From: Tardiphaga sp.
GTDB taxonomy: Bacteria > Pseudomonadota > Alphaproteobacteria > Rhizobiales > Xanthobacteraceae
NCBI RefSeq assembly: GCF_028290785.1
Contig: NZ_JAQGJD010000204.1
Span: 1 to 34,216, forward strand
Direction: 5' to 3'
DNA: 34,216 bases
Below, piece by piece: positions 451 through 34,216 of this stretch. A program made the position numbers and the translations under genes. How positions within the stretch are numbered: the stretch's first letter is position 1; each line of letters opens with the position of its first letter. The notes beneath the pieces are model-generated. The model was not told the DNA's origin, searched no databases, and saw only the letters and a program-made list of their open reading frames with translations.

Positions 451-3400
451 TCAATGCAGGAGCGGCGTCCGCAAGTCGAGGGTCAACGGAAATTCAAGTG
501 TGCGTTCTTCCTTCGGCGGGTCCATTTCGCCGGGCGTGTGCCCGATCTGCTCGAAACGCGCCAGCCGCCGGGCTTCCGCCTCGTAGGAATTGACCGGCTT
601 GGTGTCGTAGCTGCGGCCGCCGGGATGCGCGACGTGATAGACGCAACCGCCGAGCGACCGCCGGCTCCAGGTATCGACGATGTCGAACACCAACGGCGCA
701 TGGACGGGGATGGTCGGGTGCAGGCCGGAGGCCGGCTGCCACGCCTTGAAGCGGACCGCGGCGACCACCTCGCCGGAGCGGCCGGTGTCGGTCATCGGCA
801 GCGCGCGGCCGTTACAGGTAATGAGGTGCCGACCCGGCACAAAGCCGTTGGCCTTGAGCTGCAGCCGTTCCACCGACGAATCGACGTAGCGGACGGTGCC
901 GCCGGCCGAGCTTTCTTCGCCCAGCACGTGCCACGGCTCCAGCGCCTGCCGGACCTCCAGCGTCACGCCGCCATAGGTGACATGGCCGAACACCGGGAAG
1001 CGGAATTCGAGCTGGGCCTCGAACCACTCTTTCGAGAATTCGTAGCCGGAGGCGCCGAGCTCGGCGAGCACGCCCTGGAAATCCTCCCAGAGATAATGCG
1101 GCAGCATGAAGCGATCGTGCAGCGTGGTGCCCCAGCGCACGAACTGGCCCTGCTGCGGCTCGCGCCACATCTTTGCGATCAGCGCGCGGATCAGAAGCTG
1201 CTGCGCGAGGCTCATGCGCGGATCGGGCGGCATCTCCAGCGCGCGGAATTCAACCAGACCCAGACGGCCCGTCGTGCCATCCGGCGAATACAGCTTGTCG
1301 ATGCAAATCTCGGCGCGATGGGTGTTGCCGGTGATATCCACCAGGATGTGCCGGAACAGCCGGTCGACCAGCCACAGCGGCGCTTTGGTGCCGGGCGGCG
1401 GCACCTGCGCCAGCGCGATCTCCAGCTCGTAGAGGCCATCATGACGCGCTTCGTCGATGCGCGGCGCCTGACTGGTCGGCCCGATGAACATGCCGGAGAA
1501 CAGGTAGGACAGACAGGGATGGCGCTGCCAGTACAGCACCAGGCTCTTCAACAGATCCGGGCGGCGCAGGAACGGCGAATCGGCCGGCGTGCTGCCGCCG
1601 ACCACCACATGGTTGCCGCCGCCGGTGCCGGTGTGGCGACCATCGACGAGGAAACGGTTGGCACCGAGCCGGACCCGCGCGGCTTCCTCATAGAGGAATG
1701 TCGTGGTGTCCACGGCTTCGCGCCATGTCGCGGCCGGGTGAATATTGATTTCGAGCACGCCGGGGTCCGGCGTCACCTTGATGACCTCGACGCGCGGGTC
1801 AAACGGCGGCGGATAGCCCTCGACATGGACCTGCAGCTGCATCTCCTCGGCGGTCGCTTCCAGCGCGGTGATCAGTTCGAGATAGTCTTCGAGCTTTTCC
1901 ACCGGCGGCATGAACGCGCACAGGATGCCGTCGCGCACTTCGATCGACATGGCGGTGCGCACCGGACCGTGGTTTCGGCGTTCCGCCTGGATTTTCTCGG
2001 CCGTGGCCTTGGCCCGTTCCGTCGCCTCGGCGTCGTCAGCTGACAGTTCGCCGCGCGGATCCATCGGATCCCGCTCGACGATGTAGGGGAAATCGTCCTC
2101 CGGCACATGCGGCAATGACGCAATCGGCAGCCGCAGGCCGAGCGGCGAATCCCCGGGCGTCAGGAACAGGTTGCCGCGGCGCAGCTTCCAGTGCTCGGAG
2201 CGCCAGCGGGTATCGGTGTTGTCGGCTCCGGCGTTCCAGCGCTGGATCGGCAGCACGAACCCCTTCGGCGTGTTCAGCCCGTGGTCGAACACCTTGGCCA
2301 TCCGCGAACGTTCTTCCGGGTCGGCTAGCTTGGAATCGCTGGGATCGACGTTGTGCGGCAGGCCCGCTTCCTTCTGCAGCCAGTGCGCGGGGTCTTCGAA
2401 CGCCGGCATGATATATTCGCGGGGCACGCCAAGCCGATGCGCGGCGCCTTCGGCGAATTTCTCGGCGTCACCGACGCCGGCGTTGCGCGGGCCTTCGACG
2501 CGTGCGATCAGCGCGTCGTTCTTCCAGATCGGCACGCCGTCCTTGCGCCAGTACAGGCCGAACGCCCAGCGCGGCAGGCTTTCGCCCGGGTACCATTTGC
2601 CCTGCCCGTAATGCAGCAGCCCGCCCGGCGCGAAACGCGTCCGCAGCCGGCGGATCAGGTCGTCGCCGAGGCCGCGCTTGGTCGGGCCCACGGCGGCGAT
2701 ATTCCACTCCGCGCCTTCCAGATCATCCATCGAGACGAAGGTCGGCTCGCCGCCCATGGTGAGGCGGACGTCGTCGGCCTTCAGATCGGCATCGACCTTT
2801 TCCCCCAGCGCGTCGAGCTTCTGCCACGCTGCTTCCGAGAACGGCTTGGTGATCCGCGGCGCCTCGCGGACGCGCTTGACCTCCATCTCGAAGCCGAACT
2901 CGACTTCGGCAAAGCCCGCCATGCCGGAGATCGGCGCCGCCGAGCGGAAGTGCGGCGTGGCGGCGACCGGGATATGGCCTTCGCCGGTCAGCATGCCTGA
3001 GGTCGCGTCGAAGCCGATCCAGCCGGCGCCGGGGATGTAGACTTCGGCCCAGGCGTGGAGATCGGTAAAGTCGTTCTCGACCTCGCGCGGGCCTTCCAGC
3101 GGATCGATGTCCGGCCGCAACTGGATCAGGTAGCCCGACACGAAGCGCGCGGCGAGACCGAGATGGCGCAGCGTCTGGATCAACAGCCAAGCCGAATCGC
3201 GGCACGAGCCGGACCTGTTGGCCAGCGTCTGCTCCGGCGTCTGGATGCCGGGCTCCATGCGGATGATGTAATTGACCTGGGTGCGCAGCCGCGCGTTGAG
3301 ATCGACCAGGAAATTGACCGTGCTGGGTGCCTGCTTCGCAATCTCCGCAAGGTAGGCCTGGAACAGCGGACCGGTTTCTTCCGTCGCCATATAGGGCGCC

Positions 3401-3741: not shown

Positions 3742-3848
3742 GTTGGGCAACTCCAGCGGATTTTTTGAGCAGAACACCGGCAGAGATGTGGATCAAGGCC
3801 TAACAACGGGCAGATGTTGCCTGAGGAAAGGGCGCTCACCTCTCAGCC

Positions 3849-3942
3849 GTCATTGCGAGGAGCCTCTTGGCGACGAAGCAATCCAGTTCTTGCCTAGTTC
3901 GTGGCTTCTGGATTGCCGCGTCGCTTCGCTCCTCGCAATGAC
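3849..3942. repeat. Palindromic dispersed repeat, family A, copy 1
   Basis: A 94-bp imperfect palindrome with termini GTCATTGCGAGGAGC and GCTCCTCGCAATGAC and internal marks GACGAAGCAATCCAG and CTGGATTGCCGCGTCG. It lies between the uxaA and transglutaminase genes. Four related copies occur in this window, at 6271, 9321, 22669 and 32832, all intergenic. Confidence 0.9.
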
Positions 3943-3962
3943 GTGGAGGGGTTCTTCCACTC

Positions 3963-6270: not shown

Positions 6271-6354
6271 CATCATCGCGAGGAGCTCTTGCGACGAAGC
6301 AATCCAGTCTGCGGGTGTGGCTCTCTGGATTGCTTCGCTTCGCTCGCAATGATG
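6271..6354. repeat. Palindromic dispersed repeat, family A, copy 2
   Basis: An 84-bp variant with ends CATCATCGCGAGGAGC and CGCTCGCAATGATG and the core GACGAAGCAATCCAG. It lies just downstream of the nitroreductase gene and is the most diverged of the five copies. Confidence 0.85.
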
Positions 6355-8275: not shown

Positions 8276-8324
8276 GTCGTCCTCCCGATGTTGGCCTTGT
8301 CGCTTCGGACAAGTGCCTCTTTCT

Positions 8325-8493
8325 TCATTCTCCCCTTGTGGGAGATGGTGGCGCGGCCGACGGCCGGGCCGGATGAGGGGCAGCCACAGGATCCTAGCTC
8401 GTGGCTACCCCTCACCCGTCTCGAACCGCTGCGCGGTTCGATCCACCCTCTCCCACCTAGCGAAGCTTCGCTTCGCGCGGGGGAGAGGGAAGA
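8325..8493. repeat. Palindromic dispersed repeat, family B, copy 1
   Basis: About 170 bp between TTCTCCCCTTGTGGGAGA and GGGGGAGAGGGAAGAAG, with inner marks GGATGAGGGGCAGCC and CTACCCCTCACCC. It fills the gap between the TctC and aldolase genes. Related copies are at 19958 and 25410. Confidence 0.85.
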
Positions 8494-9291: not shown

Positions 9292-9320
9292 GTTGTAGTC
9301 CTTCGTTGCGATTTCAATTC

Positions 9321-9408
9321 GTCATTGCGAGGAGCCCTTGCGACGAAGCAATCCAGTTCTTCCTTGTGGCTTTCTGGATTGCCGCGTCGCTTCGCTCCTC
9401 GCAATGAC
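9321..9408. repeat. Palindromic dispersed repeat, family A, copy 3
   Basis: An 88-bp copy with the intact ends GTCATTGCGAGGAGC and GCTCCTCGCAATGAC, between the Ldh2-type dehydrogenase and aldolase genes. It is a good reference copy because both arms are nearly complete. Confidence 0.9.
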
Positions 9409-9426
9409 CGGTGATGGGGCTGTTTT

Positions 9427-21035: not shown

Positions 21036-22658
21036 ATGACCGCACGAACCGGCGGCGAAGCCATTGTCGATGGGTTGCTCGCCCATAATATCGATACCGT
21101 GTTCGGTCTGCCCGGCGCGCAGATCTACGGGCTGTTCGACGCCTTCCATCAGGCGCAGCTCAAGGTGATCGGCGCCCGTCATGAGCAGGCCTGTGGCTAC
21201 ATGGCCTATGGCTATGCCCGCGCCTCCGGCAAGCCCGGCGTGTTCAGCGTGGTGCCCGGCCCCGGCGTGCTCAATGCGGGTGCTGCGATGCTCACCGCGT
21301 TCGGCTCCAACGAGCCGTTGCTGTGCCTGACCGGTCAGGTGCCCACCGCCTTTCTCGGCAAGGGCCGCGGCCATCTGCACGAGATGCCGGACCAGTTGGC
21401 AACGCTGCGCAGCTTCGTGAACTGGGCCGACCGCATCGAACATCCCGGCGACGCGCCGACCAAGGTGTCGCGCGCGTTCCAGGAGATGATGTCGGGGCGA
21501 CGCGGCCCGGTGGCGCTGGAAATGCCGTGGGACGTGTTCACCCAACGCGCGGAAGTCGCCGCCTCCACACCATTCGCGCGCCTGCCCTCGCCGCAACCGG
21601 ACAGCGATCGCATCCAGGCTGCGGCGGCGCTGATATGCTCCAGCAAGAACCCGATGATCTTCGTCGGTTCCGGCGCGTTCGACGCGGCAAGCGAGATCCT
21701 CGAACTGGCCGAACTGATCGACGCGCCCGTGGTGGCGTTTCGCTCCGGCCGCGGCATCGTCAGCAACGCCCATGAGCTGGGTCTCACCATGGCGGCGGCG
21801 TATAATTTATGGCCGGAGACCGACCTGATCGTCGGGATCGGCACGCGGCTGGAATTGCCGGCATGGCGCTGGCCGTACCGGCCCGAAGGGCAGAAGTCGG
21901 TGCGGATCGACATCGATCCGGTGGAGATGCGCCGCTTCGCGGCCGACGTTGCGGTCGTCGCCGACGCGCAGGCCGGCACGCGCGATCTGCTCGCCGCGGT
22001 GCGCAAGGTCGGCTTCACGAAATCGGCGGGACGCCGGCAGGCGATCCGCGATGCTTCGGCAAAAGCATTGCACGACATCCAGTCGGTGCAGCCGCAGATG
22101 GCCTATCTCGACATCTTGCGCGCCGCGCTGCCCGCCAACGCCATCGTCACCGACGAGTTATCGCAGGTCGGCTTCACCTCATGGTACGGCTTTCCGATTT
22201 ACGAACCGCGCACCTTCATCACGTCGGGCTATCAGGGCACGCTGGGCTCCGGCTTCCCGACCGCGCTGGGCGCCAAGGTCGCCTATCCCGATCGCCCGGT
22301 GGTAGCGATCACCGGCGATGGCGGCTTCATGTTCGCGGTGCAGGAACTGGCGACGGCAGTGCAGTTCAAGATCGGCGTGGTCGTACTGGTGTTCGACAAC
22401 AACGCCTATGGAAATGTGCGGCGCGACCAGTTGCAGGTGTTCGACGGCCGGGTGACGGCCGCCGATCTGGTCAATCCGGATTTTGTCCGGCTCGCGGAAT
22501 CGTTTGGCGTAGGCGCGGCGCGCGTCACGTCACCGGCCGCATTCAAGCCGGCGCTGGAAAAAGCGCTGGCCGATGGGGGGCCGTATCTGATCGCCATCGA
22601 CGTAGTCAGGGATTCCGAAACCAGCCCGTGGGCGTTCATTCACCCGGCGAAGCCGTAG
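21036..22658 (+). CDS. Thiamine diphosphate-dependent enzyme of the acetolactate synthase-like family
   Basis: The product is 540 aa from ATG 21036, which has GGGA nine bases upstream; an earlier in-frame ATG at 21009 overlaps the FAH stop and would add nine residues. The N-terminal Pyr domain carries catalytic Glu50 (GARHEQACGYMAYGYARASG). The middle domain follows, and the C-terminal PP domain has GDGGFMFAVQELATAVQF followed by FDNNAYGNVRRDQ (the GDG-NN ThDP/Mg site). The family includes acetolactate synthases, glyoxylate carboligase, benzoylformate decarboxylase-like and 2-keto acid decarboxylating enzymes. It is not part of the known homoprotocatechuate route. Its place at the operon end suggests it handles a pathway product such as pyruvate, a semialdehyde or an arylpyruvate, which is untested inference. 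Confidence 0.85.
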   Translation: MTARTGGEAIVDGLLAHNIDTVFGLPGAQIYGLFDAFHQAQLKVIGARHEQACGYMAYGYARASGKPGVFSVVPGPGVLNAGAAMLTAFGSNEPLLCLTGQVPTAFLGKGRGHLHEMPDQLATLRSFVNWADRIEHPGDAPTKVSRAFQEMMSGRRGPVALEMPWDVFTQRAEVAASTPFARLPSPQPDSDRIQAAAALICSSKNPMIFVGSGAFDAASEILELAELIDAPVVAFRSGRGIVSNAHELGLTMAAAYNLWPETDLIVGIGTRLELPAWRWPYRPEGQKSVRIDIDPVEMRRFAADVAVVADAQAGTRDLLAAVRKVGFTKSAGRRQAIRDASAKALHDIQSVQPQMAYLDILRAALPANAIVTDELSQVGFTSWYGFPIYEPRTFITSGYQGTLGSGFPTALGAKVAYPDRPVVAITGDGGFMFAVQELATAVQFKIGVVVLVFDNNAYGNVRRDQLQVFDGRVTAADLVNPDFVRLAESFGVGAARVTSPAAFKPALEKALADGGPYLIAIDVVRDSETSPWAFIHPAKP

Positions 22659-22668
22659 ACCCATCCAC

Positions 22669-22748
22669 GTCATTGCGAGCGCAGCGAAGCAATCCAGAAG
22701 CAACAAGCGAAGTCTGGATTGCTTCGTCGCTTCGCTCCTCGCAATGAC
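22669..22748. repeat. Palindromic dispersed repeat, family A, copy 4
   Basis: An 80-bp copy with ends GTCATTGCGAGCGCAGCG and GCTCCTCGCAATGAC, shortened in the left arm. It lies between the convergent ThDP-enzyme and substrate-binding protein genes. Confidence 0.9.
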
Positions 22749-22757
22749 GACCGAGCC

Positions 22758-25348: not shown

Positions 25349-25409
25349 GATGCCCTCAGCGCGCAACATAGAACAGCGCAAGCATTATTGGAAAGCGGCG
25401 CGGTGCTCT

Positions 25410-25555
25410 TCTTCCTTCTCCCCTTGTGGGAGAAGGTGGCACGGTCGAAGGCCGTGACGGATGAGGGGTATTTGCACGCTCGGAGCCTGCCGCTACCCCT
25501 CACCCGTCCGCGCTTCGCGCGTCCACCCTCTCCCACAAGGGGAGAGGGAAGGAAG
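25410..25555. repeat. Palindromic dispersed repeat, family B, copy 3
   Basis: About 146 bp with long, nearly perfect ends: TTCTCCCCTTGTGGGAGA and CCTCTCCCACAAGGGGAGAG. Inner marks GGATGAGGGGTA and CTACCCCTCACCC match copy 1 at 8325. It lies between the MFS and alkB genes. Confidence 0.9.
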
Positions 25556-25570
25556 AAGACGCAGCACTCG

Positions 25571-31256: not shown

Positions 31257-31670
31257 ATGGCCGAGGCTTCCCGCGCGCGTCCGAAACCGACACCGGAAAC
31301 CCAGCATTTCTGGGACGGCACGCAGGCCGGCGAATTGCGCCTGCAGCGCTGCGACGAATGCGCCAACGTGTATTTTCCGCCGCGCCCGTTCTGCCCGTCC
31401 TGCGCCTCGCGCAAGGTCAGCGTCTTCAAGGCCTCCGGCCGCGGCACGCTGTACAGCTACGTGATCAATCACCGCCCCGCCGCCCCGGGCTTCACGCCGC
31501 CTTACGCCATTGCCGTGGTCGAGCTGGAAGAAGGCCCGCGGCTGATGAGCAATATCCTGGATTGTCCGCAAACGCCGGAAGCGCTGGTGCTCGACATGAA
31601 GCTGGAAGTCGCGTTCGAAAAACTCGACGACGCCATCACGCTTGCGCAATTCCGTCCGGCGAAAGGCTAG
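31257..31670 (+). CDS. DUF35 zinc-ribbon/OB-fold protein, thiolase partner
   Basis: The product is 137 aa from ATG 31257, with GGGAGAG nine bases upstream; an earlier in-frame start at 31188 lacks a site. The zinc ribbon is CDECANVYFPPRPFCPSC (two CxxC pairs, near residues 31-48). The OB-fold follows (GTLYSYVINHRPAAPGFTPPYAIAVVELEEGPRLMSNI). Such proteins form obligate complexes with SCPx-like thiolases or retro-aldolases, as in steroid side-chain degradation (ChsH2-Ltp2). The thiolase gene starts four bases after the stop, which fits that partnership. Confidence 0.9.
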   Translation: MAEASRARPKPTPETQHFWDGTQAGELRLQRCDECANVYFPPRPFCPSCASRKVSVFKASGRGTLYSYVINHRPAAPGFTPPYAIAVVELEEGPRLMSNILDCPQTPEALVLDMKLEVAFEKLDDAITLAQFRPAKG

Positions 31671-31674
31671 CATC

Positions 31675-32814
31675 ATGCGCAGGAACGCAGTCGCCGTCGT
31701 CGGCGCCGCCGAGACCACCGAACTCGGCGTCATCCCCAACATGTCGCAGTTGCAGCTCCATGCCGATGCCGCATTGAACGCCATCAAGGACGCTGGCCTC
31801 AAACTGTCGGACATCGACGGCATCGCCACAGCGGTGGAAACGCCGCAGCAGATCGCGCATTACCTCGGCATCACGCCGACCTGGGTCGATGGCACCTCGG
31901 TGGGCGGTTGTTCGTTCATGCTGCACGTCCGCCATGCCGCGGCGGCCATCGAGGCAGGCCTGTGCAAGACCGTGCTGATCACGCATGCCGAAAGCGGCAA
32001 GTCGATGATCGGCAAGGCGCCGCGCTCGATCCCCGCCGACAGCCTGCAGGGCCAGTTCGAGGCGCCGTTCGGCGTCTACGGCCCTCCCAGCATGTTTCCG
32101 ATCCCGGTGCTGCGCTACATGAAGACCCATGGCATCACCCACGAGCAGATCGCCTCGGTGGCCGTCGTGCAGCGCGAATGGGCGGCGAAGAATCCGCGCG
32201 CGACCATGAAGGCGCCGATCACGGTCGAGGACGTGCTGAACTCACGGATGATCGCCTACCCGTTCCGCATCCTGCAATGCTGCCTCGTCACCGACGGCGG
32301 CGGCGCGCTGATCATGACCTCGGCCGAGCGCGCCAAGGACTTTCCGCACAAGCCCGTCTACATCCTCGGCACCGGCGAGAGCGTGGAAACCCCGATGGTC
32401 AGCCAGATGAAAACGTTCGACTCCTCGCGCGCGTTCACGGTGGCAGGACCGACGGCGTTTCGTGAGGCCGGCATCGCGCATAGCGACGTCGATCACCTGA
32501 TGATCTACGACGCCTTCGCGCATCTGCCGCTGTACGGTCTCGGCGATCTCGGCTTCATGCCGCATGAGGAAACCGGCAAATTCATCGCCGACGGCAACAC
32601 CCGCCCCGGTGGCAAGCTGCCGATGAACACCAATGGCGGCGGCCTTAGCTACATGCATTCCGGCATGTACGGCATGTACGCGCTGCAGGAGAGCGTGCGG
32701 CAAATGCGCGGCATCGCGCCGGCGCAGGTGCCGGGCGCGAAAATTTCGGTCTGTCATGGCGTCGGCGGCATGTTCGCCGCGTCGGGGACCGTGATTTTTA
32801 CGAACGAGGCGTAA
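31675..32814 (+). CDS. SCPx/Ltp2-like thiolase-superfamily protein
   Basis: The product is 379 aa from ATG 31675; the 11-residue upstream extension would overlap the DUF35 gene. AAAGG precedes the ATG. The thiolase fold is seen in AVVGAAETTELGVIPNMSQLQLHADAALNAIKDAGL, GTSVGGCSFMLHVRHAAAAIEAGLC, the MNTNGGGLSYMHSGMYG motif (His equivalent to the catalytic His) and CHGVGGMFAASGTVIF (the C-terminal Cys loop). Cys79 in VGGCS lies near, but not clearly at, the usual nucleophile position, so a retro-aldolase (Ltp2-like) activity is as plausible as thiolysis. With the DUF35 partner it probably cleaves a branched or hydroxylated acyl-CoA. Confidence 0.9.
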   Translation: MRRNAVAVVGAAETTELGVIPNMSQLQLHADAALNAIKDAGLKLSDIDGIATAVETPQQIAHYLGITPTWVDGTSVGGCSFMLHVRHAAAAIEAGLCKTVLITHAESGKSMIGKAPRSIPADSLQGQFEAPFGVYGPPSMFPIPVLRYMKTHGITHEQIASVAVVQREWAAKNPRATMKAPITVEDVLNSRMIAYPFRILQCCLVTDGGGALIMTSAERAKDFPHKPVYILGTGESVETPMVSQMKTFDSSRAFTVAGPTAFREAGIAHSDVDHLMIYDAFAHLPLYGLGDLGFMPHEETGKFIADGNTRPGGKLPMNTNGGGLSYMHSGMYGMYALQESVRQMRGIAPAQVPGAKISVCHGVGGMFAASGTVIFTNEA

Positions 32815-32831
32815 CGCGCCGGCCTCTCCCC

Positions 32832-32954
32832 GTCATTGCGAGGAGCGAAGCGACGCGGCAATCCAAAGCCACAAGCTCGGTGAGAACTGGATTGCTTCGT
32901 CGCAAGGGCTAAGAGGAAAGCTGGCGAGCCAGCTTTCCTTGACCTCGCAATGAC
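32832..32954. repeat. Palindromic dispersed repeat, family A, copy 5, with nested insertion
   Basis: The same ends as the other copies (GTCATTGCGAGGAGC and CCTCGCAATGAC), but 123 bp long. Compared with copy 3, 32 extra bases (32911-32942) split the right arm between CAAGGGCT and CCTCGCAATGAC. It lies between the thiolase and SDR genes. Confidence 0.9.
32914..32939. repeat. Small palindrome inserted into repeat family A
   Basis: Perfect 12-bp arms AGGAAAGCTGGC and GCCAGCTTTCCT around a 2-base centre. This is the core of the 32-base insertion in copy 5 and looks like a second, smaller mobile palindrome. Confidence 0.75.
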
Positions 32955-32985
32955 AACCATCACATTCAACCAAGAGGAACCAACC

Positions 32986-33689
32986 ATGTCACAGACCAAA
33001 TCACTCGACGGAAAAGTCATCGTCGTCACCGGCGCCGGCCGCGGCATCGGGCGCGGCATTGCGATGCTGTGCGCCGCTGAAGGCGCCAAGGTCGTCGTCA
33101 ACGATCCCGGCGTCGGCACCGACGGTTCGGGCGGCGATGGCGCCGCGCCGGCGGAACAGGTGGTCGAGGAAATCACGAAGGCCGGCGGCACCGCCGTTGC
33201 CAATTTCGAATCCGTCGCCGAAGCGATCCCCGCCAGCAAGATCATCAAGCAGGCTGTGGACACCTACGGCCGCATCGACGGCGTGGTGAACAATGCCGGC
33301 ATCCTGCGCGACGCGATCTTCCATAAAATGTCGATCGACGCGTTCGAGATGGTCATCAAGGTGCATCTGATGGGCTCGTTCTATACCTCGCACGCCGCGG
33401 CGCGTTACTTTCGCGAGCAGAACTCCGGCTCGTTCGTGCACTTCACCTCGACCTCCGGTCTCATTGGTAACTTCGGCCAGGCCAACTATTCCGCCGCCAA
33501 GCTCGGCATCGTCGGCCTGTCGAAGTCGATCGCGCTCGACATGAACCGTTTCGGCGTCAACTCGAACTGCGTCTCGCCGTTCGCCTGGAGCCGCATGATC
33601 GGCAGCATCCCGACCGAGACCGAAGCCGAGAAGGCCCGCGTGGAACGGATCCAGCGCATGGGTCCGGAAAAGATCGCACCGCTCGTCGC
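32986..33689 (+). pseudogene. SDR-family oxidoreductase, 3'-truncated by an inverted copy
   Basis: Starts at ATG 32986 with AGAGGAA upstream. The first 234 or so residues are a classical short-chain dehydrogenase: TGAGRGIGRG (NAD(P) motif, residues 16-25), NNAG (near 102), catalytic Ser in TSTSG and Tyr/Lys in NYSAAK (near 170). After LVA (about codon 235) the frame enters reverse-complement sequence of the same gene and stays open to the window edge with no stop. Homologues run about 300 residues, so about 70 C-terminal residues are missing. The family resembles hydroxyacyl-CoA or 17-beta-type dehydrogenases. It follows the thiolase gene by 171 bases. Whether this is a real truncation or an assembly join cannot be decided here. 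Confidence 0.8.
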
Positions 33690-34216
33690 GATGGACCGAG
33701 CGCAGCGGGCGCGACTGCCCCATCAGGAAAATCTCGTTCATGCGCGCGGCGAAGATCTGCCCGGTGACGTCCTTGCCGGCGTCCGAGAGCAGATAGGCGA
33801 CGAGCGGCGCGATCTTTTCCGGCCCCATGCGCTGGATCCGTTCCACGCGAGCTTTCTCGGCTTCGGTCTCGGTGGGGATGCTGCCGATCATGCGGCTCCA
33901 GGCGAACGGCGAGACGCAGTTCGAGTTGACGCCGAAGCGGTTCATGTCGAGCGCGATCGACTTCGACAGGCCGACGATGCCGAGCTTGGCGGCGGAGTAG
34001 TTGGCCTGGCCGAAGTTACCAATGAGACCGGATGTCGAGGTGAAGTGCACGAACGAGCCGGAGTTCTGCTCGCGGAAGTAACGCGCGGCGGCATGCGAGG
34101 TGTAGAACGAGCCCATCAGATGCACCTTAATGACCATCTCGAAGGCATCGATCGACATCTTGTGGAAGATCGCGTCGCGCAGGATGCCGGCATTGTTCAC
34201 CACGCCGTCGATGCGG
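33685..34216 (-). pseudogene. Second SDR copy in inverted orientation, 5' end outside window, 3' end broken
   Basis: The minus strand encodes the same SDR from RIDGVVNNAGILRD through NYSAAK and LVA. It then continues into normal family sequence absent from copy 1 (YLLSDAGKDVTGQIFAARMNEIFLMGQSRPLRSVH). It is broken near 33685-33689, where it meets copy 1 and lacks its last 30-40 residues; the frame runs on through antisense of copy 1 to a stop at 33001. Over 33797-34216 it matches 33270-33689 with 17 substitutions in 420 bases, every one synonymous. Confidence 0.8.

What the first reader, a model, noticed from the sequence alone, without database searches (positions are those of the whole stretch)
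33270..34216. Inverted, 96%-identical duplicate of an SDR gene with only synonymous differences
Copy 1 (33270-33689, plus) and copy 2 (34216-33797, minus) are inverted over 420 bp around a 107-bp spacer that belongs only to copy 2. I count 17 mismatches, all at third codon positions, so the 140 encoded residues are identical. That pattern needs long purifying selection on two full-length genes, yet both are now truncated at the join. GTCGC (33685-33689) can be assigned to either copy, a 5-bp microhomology. Fold-back amplification of one molecule would give identical arms, so the choices are a genuine inverted paralogue pair with a recent truncation, or a chimeric assembly joining two strains or species.
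Basis: partly seen in the sequence, partly recalled or inferred. Interest (0 to 1): 0.72.

Follow-up and report, generated by a model that had tools for sequence, protein, structure and literature searches.

The report
Two strains' gene copies joined backwards
The last 527 bases of this draft contig look like a sister strain's copy of an ordinary enzyme gene attached backwards at the contig's broken end, most likely a sequencing or assembly artefact rather than a real inverted gene pair.

Summary
In detail: 420-bp arms (33270-33689, 33797-34216), 17 mismatches, all synonymous third positions, and a 107-bp spacer belonging to copy 2. The arms stop at 34216 because the window is a whole contig (C278 of a 423-contig draft). 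Of 17 other genomes of the genus, 16 have the gene; the join-spanning query splits onto opposite strands in all 16, and G006 has no match. The copies are sister alleles over the whole arm (support 0.98), dS about 0.20, dN 0, so they diverged as two working genes before being joined. The same draft has one other pair of contig ends overlapping as 96% alleles; a related draft does so over this very gene. Best reading: alleles of two strains joined inverted at up to 7 bp of microhomology, in vitro or during assembly. Against it: a toy K=127 graph gave the observed contig only when the joined molecule was alone, so a genuine join is not excluded. No reads were available. Interest low.

The parts
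31642..32814 (+). Thiolase-like gene (context); a relative of it lies upstream of the SDR gene in all 16 congeners that have the SDR gene
   Evidence: ORF; best model PRK06158 (392.9 bits, below its cut-off of 421) and Thiolase_C_1; order in relatives
32986..33689 (+). SDR copy 1: first 704 bp of a gene of about 307 codons, cut at the join
   Evidence: adh_short, E 3.8e-37; full length in relatives
33270..33689 (+). Arm 1 of the inverted repeat
33683..33689 (+).
   Evidence: the copy-2 side of the match begins at query base 84 (33683) in G002 and G004
33690..33796 (-). Spacer: 3' continuation of copy 2, runs up to the join
33797..34216 (-). Arm 2: SDR copy 2, a sister allele, cut off by the end of the contig at 34216

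Best explanation
The last 527 bases are most likely not a second gene of the same chromosome. They are the allele of the same SDR gene from a sister lineage of the same population, attached in inverted orientation to the broken end of the contig. Shown: two alleles, sister-level divergence, synonymous-only differences, contig terminus, no such join in the relatives examined. Inferred: a free 3' end of a copy-1 plus strand, ending TCGTCGC, primed on the plus strand of copy 2 at GCGACGA and was extended back along it. Two plus strands of 96% identity can lie in register when both pair with the same minus strand, so branch migration would free the 3' end next to its homologue. This is the inverted-chimera mechanism described for multiple displacement amplification, here between strains. 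A join made by the assembler or by a later bin-processing step at a poorly covered, strain-mixed spot is the other version of the same reading.
For: The window is the complete contig C278 of a draft with 423 contigs, completeness 87.48, contamination 2.84, and the repeat runs to its end. All 17 differences are synonymous; dS 0.197, dN 0. Copies 1 and 2 are sisters over the arm, support 0.981. Among 296 sampled family genomes, G000 included, the closest match to copy 2 other than itself is copy 1 (96% over 420 bases), then G002 and G004 (94% over 521 and 523). Alleles at contig ends occur in the same draft: C74 and C92 overlap at 96.3% over 765 bp, 21 of 28 differences at the third codon position of the frame with the fewest stops, which is open for 227 codons; this is one such pair among 119 contigs. 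In relative G003, C318 and C356 overlap 605 bp at 96.7% over the 3' end of this same SDR gene and beyond. Sixteen of 17 congeners have the gene and none holds the join; G006, a fragmented draft, has no match. All 80 kept loci from named genomes have the gene on one strand and none has an inverted partner of 55% identity or more within the flanks held, up to 3 kb. Among 119 contigs analysed (215 ends) no other has a high-identity inverted repeat at an end. Lasken and Stockwell (PMC1855051; abstract and Discussion read): more than 85% of 475 MDA chimeras were inversions, over 70% of junctions primed at 2-21 complementary bases.
Against: No reads or depth could be seen. In the toy K=127 graph the observed unbroken tail arose in 1 of 7 molecule sets, the one holding the joined molecule alone. 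With copy 2's native continuation added, the path broke 120 bases past the join; with both natives added it also broke 127 bases before it; copy 1's native continuation alone was not tried. So the join was locally the dominant path, or read pairs carried the assembler through, which a rare chimera does not predict. Inverted chimeras of the MDA type are mostly within one molecule (PMC1855051), and nothing shows that this sample was so amplified. The other contig ends sampled show no such repeat, so it is not a systematic fault of this assembly. The sister relation is not uniform: over the last 77 aligned bases before the join copy 1 is 98.7% identical to G002 and G004 but 94.8% to copy 2.
Confidence: 0.77

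Rival explanations
1. A genuine chromosomal structure: the genome once held two tail-to-tail SDR copies, one acquired from a sister lineage, and a recent deletion at short microhomology removed both 3' ends.
For: Differences are synonymous only, as two working genes would keep; the contig passes the join unbroken, as a real and dominant path would; second copies of this gene occur in the family, in G090 and G174.
Against: No inverted neighbour in the 16 congeners with the gene or the 80 kept named loci; the second copies in G090 and G174 lie about 239 and 437 kb from the first; both 3' ends would be lost together although 16 of 17 congeners keep the gene; long near-palindromes are unstable in bacteria (general knowledge, not tested).
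Confidence: 0.17
2. Same-strain fold-back chimera whose arms look different because the assembly graph mixes strain letters across the join.
For: The nearest copy-specific bases flanking the join span 131 bases, more than a 128-mer, so strain phase across the join is not fixed by the graph if K is 127.
Against: In the four sets with same-strain fold-backs the observed 617-base tail was in no unitig. It would need the same join in both strains.
Confidence: 0.05
3. Inverted duplication within one genome that diverged in place after the join.
For: Fold-back inverted duplications form in living cells (PMC10622511, yeast; search listing only).
Against: Truncated copies diverging freely would not show 17 of 17 synonymous changes (chance 2e-11 to 4e-10).
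Confidence: 0.01

Closest known systems
Inverted chimeras of multiple displacement amplification (Lasken and Stockwell 2007, PMC1855051; abstract and Discussion read)
   Same: Inverted join of nearby sequence, loss of the stretch between, short complementary bases at the junction.
   Different: Those were from one E. coli cell and mostly within one molecule; here the arms are two alleles, and the amplification history of the sample is unknown.
Microhomology-induced chimeric reads of library end repair (MicroSEC, PMC8674242; passages read)
   Same: Mis-annealing of two homologous single strands, or of one hairpin, at microhomology.
   Different: Described in formalin-fixed human tissue; those are single reads, not an assembled contig end.
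Strain-mixed contig ends in draft genomes
   Same: Two alleles of about 96% identity at contig ends, as in C74/C92 of this draft and C318/C356 of G003.
   Different: Those overlap in separate contigs; here the allele is joined, inverted, to the contig itself.

Membership tests
Genuine inverted paralogue pair | Both copies lie in one replicon, with sequence beyond both copies | tested here: inconclusive
   The contig ends inside copy 2 at 34216.
Genuine inverted paralogue pair | Same arrangement in relatives | tested here: not met
   0 of 17 congeners, 16 of which have the gene; 0 of 80 kept named loci; join pattern 0 hits in genome contigs, where the window's own genome may be left out.
Strain chimera at a contig end | Arms differ like alleles of two lineages under selection | tested here: met
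   dS 0.197, dN 0, sisters at 0.981; near the join copy 1 is closer to G002 and G004.
Strain chimera at a contig end | Join within a short distance of a contig end | tested here: met
   527 bases from the end.
Strain chimera at a contig end | A second strain is present in the same draft | tested here: met
   C74/C92 96.3% over 765 bp; one such pair among 119 contigs.
Strain chimera at a contig end | No or abnormal read support across the join | not testable with these tools
   No reads held.
Classical SDR (adh_short, PF00106) | Match above the Pfam gathering score | tested here: met
   128.1 bits against 26.6 for copy 1.

The most novel reading that the evidence does not exclude
The join is real and formed in a living cell: DNA of a sister strain entered, paired with the resident gene, and the resident strand switched template in inverted orientation onto the incoming allele, leaving a between-strain near-palindrome as a by-product of homologous recombination.
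Probability: 0.05. Interest if true: 0.45.

Novelty: not a real feature. Interest (0 to 1): 0.1.

Why it matters
Mainly as a caution: a terminal inverted repeat whose arms differ only synonymously can mark a contig end where two strains were joined, and gene calls there (two truncated enzymes) should not be taken as gene loss or duplication. If the join were real it would be a record of inverted template switching between strains.

Tried and rejected
A shared-k-mer cause for the contig end was considered, because the outer 54 bases of the two arms are identical. It was rejected because contig ends of this draft overlap by exactly 127 bases where they overlap exactly at all (7 overlaps and 1 fork among 215 ends, lengths 18 to 300 tested), and the longest identical run between the arms is 62.

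C165 as the native continuation of copy 1: it holds the 3' part of an SDR gene followed by a convergent gene that also lies downstream of the SDR gene in several relatives (I called it ppc from memory in my scripts, and the one family search that held it failed). Its SDR part is only 79% identical to copy 1 over 346 bases, so it is a third allele or a paralogue, not the continuation.

Hairpin ends as a systematic fault of this draft: not found in 118 other contigs analysed. Of 130 contigs of G000 fetched, 12 read as N and were left out; with the window, 119 were analysed, 1.29 of 5.28 Mb, 96 of them to both ends and 23 over the first 20 kb only. One search printed its repeat table before its output was cut; the overlap part was redone. 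One search listed only repeats of 85% identity or more.

A join pattern scan of genome contigs gave nothing. Rfam gave no match in the window. Literature searches served to find chimera mechanisms; no claim is made that the case is not in print.

Full report
What was checked. The inverted repeat is there as described: arms 33270-33689 and 33797-34216, 420 bp, 107 bp between them. A direct comparison gave 17 mismatches, all at codon position 3 and all synonymous, over 139 complete codons. Random substitutions on these codons would all be synonymous with a chance of 2e-11 to 4e-10. The divergence therefore built up while both copies were working genes.

Where it lies. The window is the whole of contig C278 of a draft genome with 423 contigs, 5.28 Mb, completeness 87.48 and contamination 2.84. 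The repeat is cut off by the end of the contig, so nothing is known of what lies beyond copy 2. The genus is therefore most likely Tardiphaga; the draft itself is unnamed.

What the gene is. Copy 1 is the first 704 bp of a short-chain dehydrogenase/reductase gene (Pfam adh_short, 128.1 bits). Its best NCBIfam model is PRK07791, 235.7 bits, below the cut-off of 373. In relatives it is a gene of about 307 codons. In all 16 congeners that have it a thiolase-like gene lies upstream, and in several a convergent gene lies downstream. The enzyme is ordinary.

Relatives. A query spanning the join (33600-33820) was run on the 18 genomes held for the genus, G000 included. Of 17 others, 16 matched; in each the query broke into two pieces on opposite strands over the same gene, and no piece crossed the join by more than about 11 bases. 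G003 shows this on two contigs, which overlap as alleles. The one without a match, G006, is a fragmented draft. Of 273 related loci found in genome contigs the best 80 were kept; all 80 have the gene on one strand and none has an inverted partner of 55% identity or more in the flanks held. Of 296 sampled family genomes, G000 included, 107 matched copy 2 at E 1e-80 or better; the closest match other than itself is copy 1 (96% over 420 bases), then G002 and G004 (94%). Apart from G000, two genomes, G090 and G174, have two copies, about 239 and 437 kb apart.

Two strains. Copies 1 and 2 are sisters in a tree of the arm (support 0.981), with dS 0.197 and dN 0. Their 96.0% identity lies in the range of the closest pairs of congeneric genomes, 97.1% for G016/G009 and 96.9% for G004/G002. 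So copy 2 looks like an allele of a sister strain or a very close species. The relation is not uniform: over the last 77 aligned bases before the join copy 1 is 98.7% identical to G002 and G004 and 94.8% to copy 2, so past recombination among lineages is likely. The draft shows strain mixing elsewhere: contigs C74 and C92 overlap at their ends at 96.3% over 765 bp plus 94.3% over 212 bp; in the frame with the fewest stops, 21 of the 28 differences in the longer piece are at the third position and 6 amino acids differ. It is the only such pair among 119 contigs. In relative G003, contigs C318 and C356 overlap by 605 bp at 96.7% over the 3' end of this very SDR gene and beyond. A third allele or paralogue sits at the start of C165, 79% identical to copy 1 over 346 bases.

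How common such ends are. Of 119 contigs analysed, 96 to both ends, only C278 has a high-identity inverted repeat at an end. It is thus a single event in the sample, not a habit of this assembly.

The join. Copy 1 ends in TCGTCGC. What follows copy 2 natively is not seen; if it is like 7 of 16 congeners (G002 and G004 among them) or C165 it gives 7 bp of microhomology, if like G007, G011 or G017 6 bp, if like the other six 2 or 3 (read off). Contig ends in this draft overlap by exactly 127 bases (7 overlaps, 1 fork), which points to a de Bruijn assembly with K=127; the assembler is inference. The nearest copy-specific letters on the two sides of the join span 131 bases, so no 128-mer links them.

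Result against the reading. A toy K=127 graph was built for seven sets of molecules with stand-in flanks, the spacer taken as equal in both strains. The observed tail appeared in one unitig in 1 of 7 sets, the one with the joined molecule alone. With copy 2's native continuation added the path broke 120 bases past the join, with both natives also 127 bases before it; the four sets with same-strain fold-backs did not give it either. So either native copies were missing or very thin here, or read pairs took the assembler through, or the join is real. The toy ignores coverage, read pairs and lower K, so it does not decide, but it lowers the confidence in a simple rare chimera.

Mechanism. The most economical account is that a free 3' end of copy 1 primed on the same strand of copy 2 at the microhomology and copied it backwards, as described for MDA inversions (PMC1855051, abstract and Discussion) and for mis-annealed homologous single strands in library end repair (PMC8674242, passages). 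That two strands of different strains lay in register is inferred from their 96% identity. A join by the assembler or by later bin processing cannot be told apart from this without reads.

Verdict. Observation confirmed; best read as a between-strain artefact at a contig end (0.77), with a genuine join at 0.17. Interest is low.

Noticed in passing
window 3840-3952, 6273-6352, 9319-9421, 22657-22755, 32823-32955: A dispersed palindromic element built around TCATTGCGAGGAGC: 7 sites with up to 1 mismatch in the window against 0.03 expected, 93 forward and 96 reverse exact sites in the draft against 0 for the reversed control. The copy between the thiolase and SDR genes folds strongly as single-stranded DNA, z -5.76; no Rfam match. 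It resembles REP or MITE-like intergenic repeats (recalled, not tested).
   Followed up: partly
L034 (G000 contig C165) 1-597: Third SDR allele or paralogue, mosaic-looking: the first 370 bases are at most 83% identical to the matches in 296 sampled family genomes, while the two last 100-column blocks of the alignment are 88-94% identical to 14 of 16 congeners. May be a recombinant allele.
   Followed up: partly
L108 (G000 C74) 2307-3302 and L166 (G000 C92) 1-1164: Two contig ends overlap as 94-96% alleles of one locus, a sign of a second strain in the draft.
   Followed up: partly
L144 (G003 C318) and L145 (G003 C356): In a related draft two contigs end as 96.7% alleles over the same SDR gene; laid end to end they overlap rather than forming an inverted join.
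   Followed up: yes
window 25407-25556 and 8318-8423: Another inverted-repeat element: 25407-25556 matches its own reverse complement at 81% and 8318-8423 at 76%, and it has 85-86% relatives in contigs L053 and L086.
   Followed up: no
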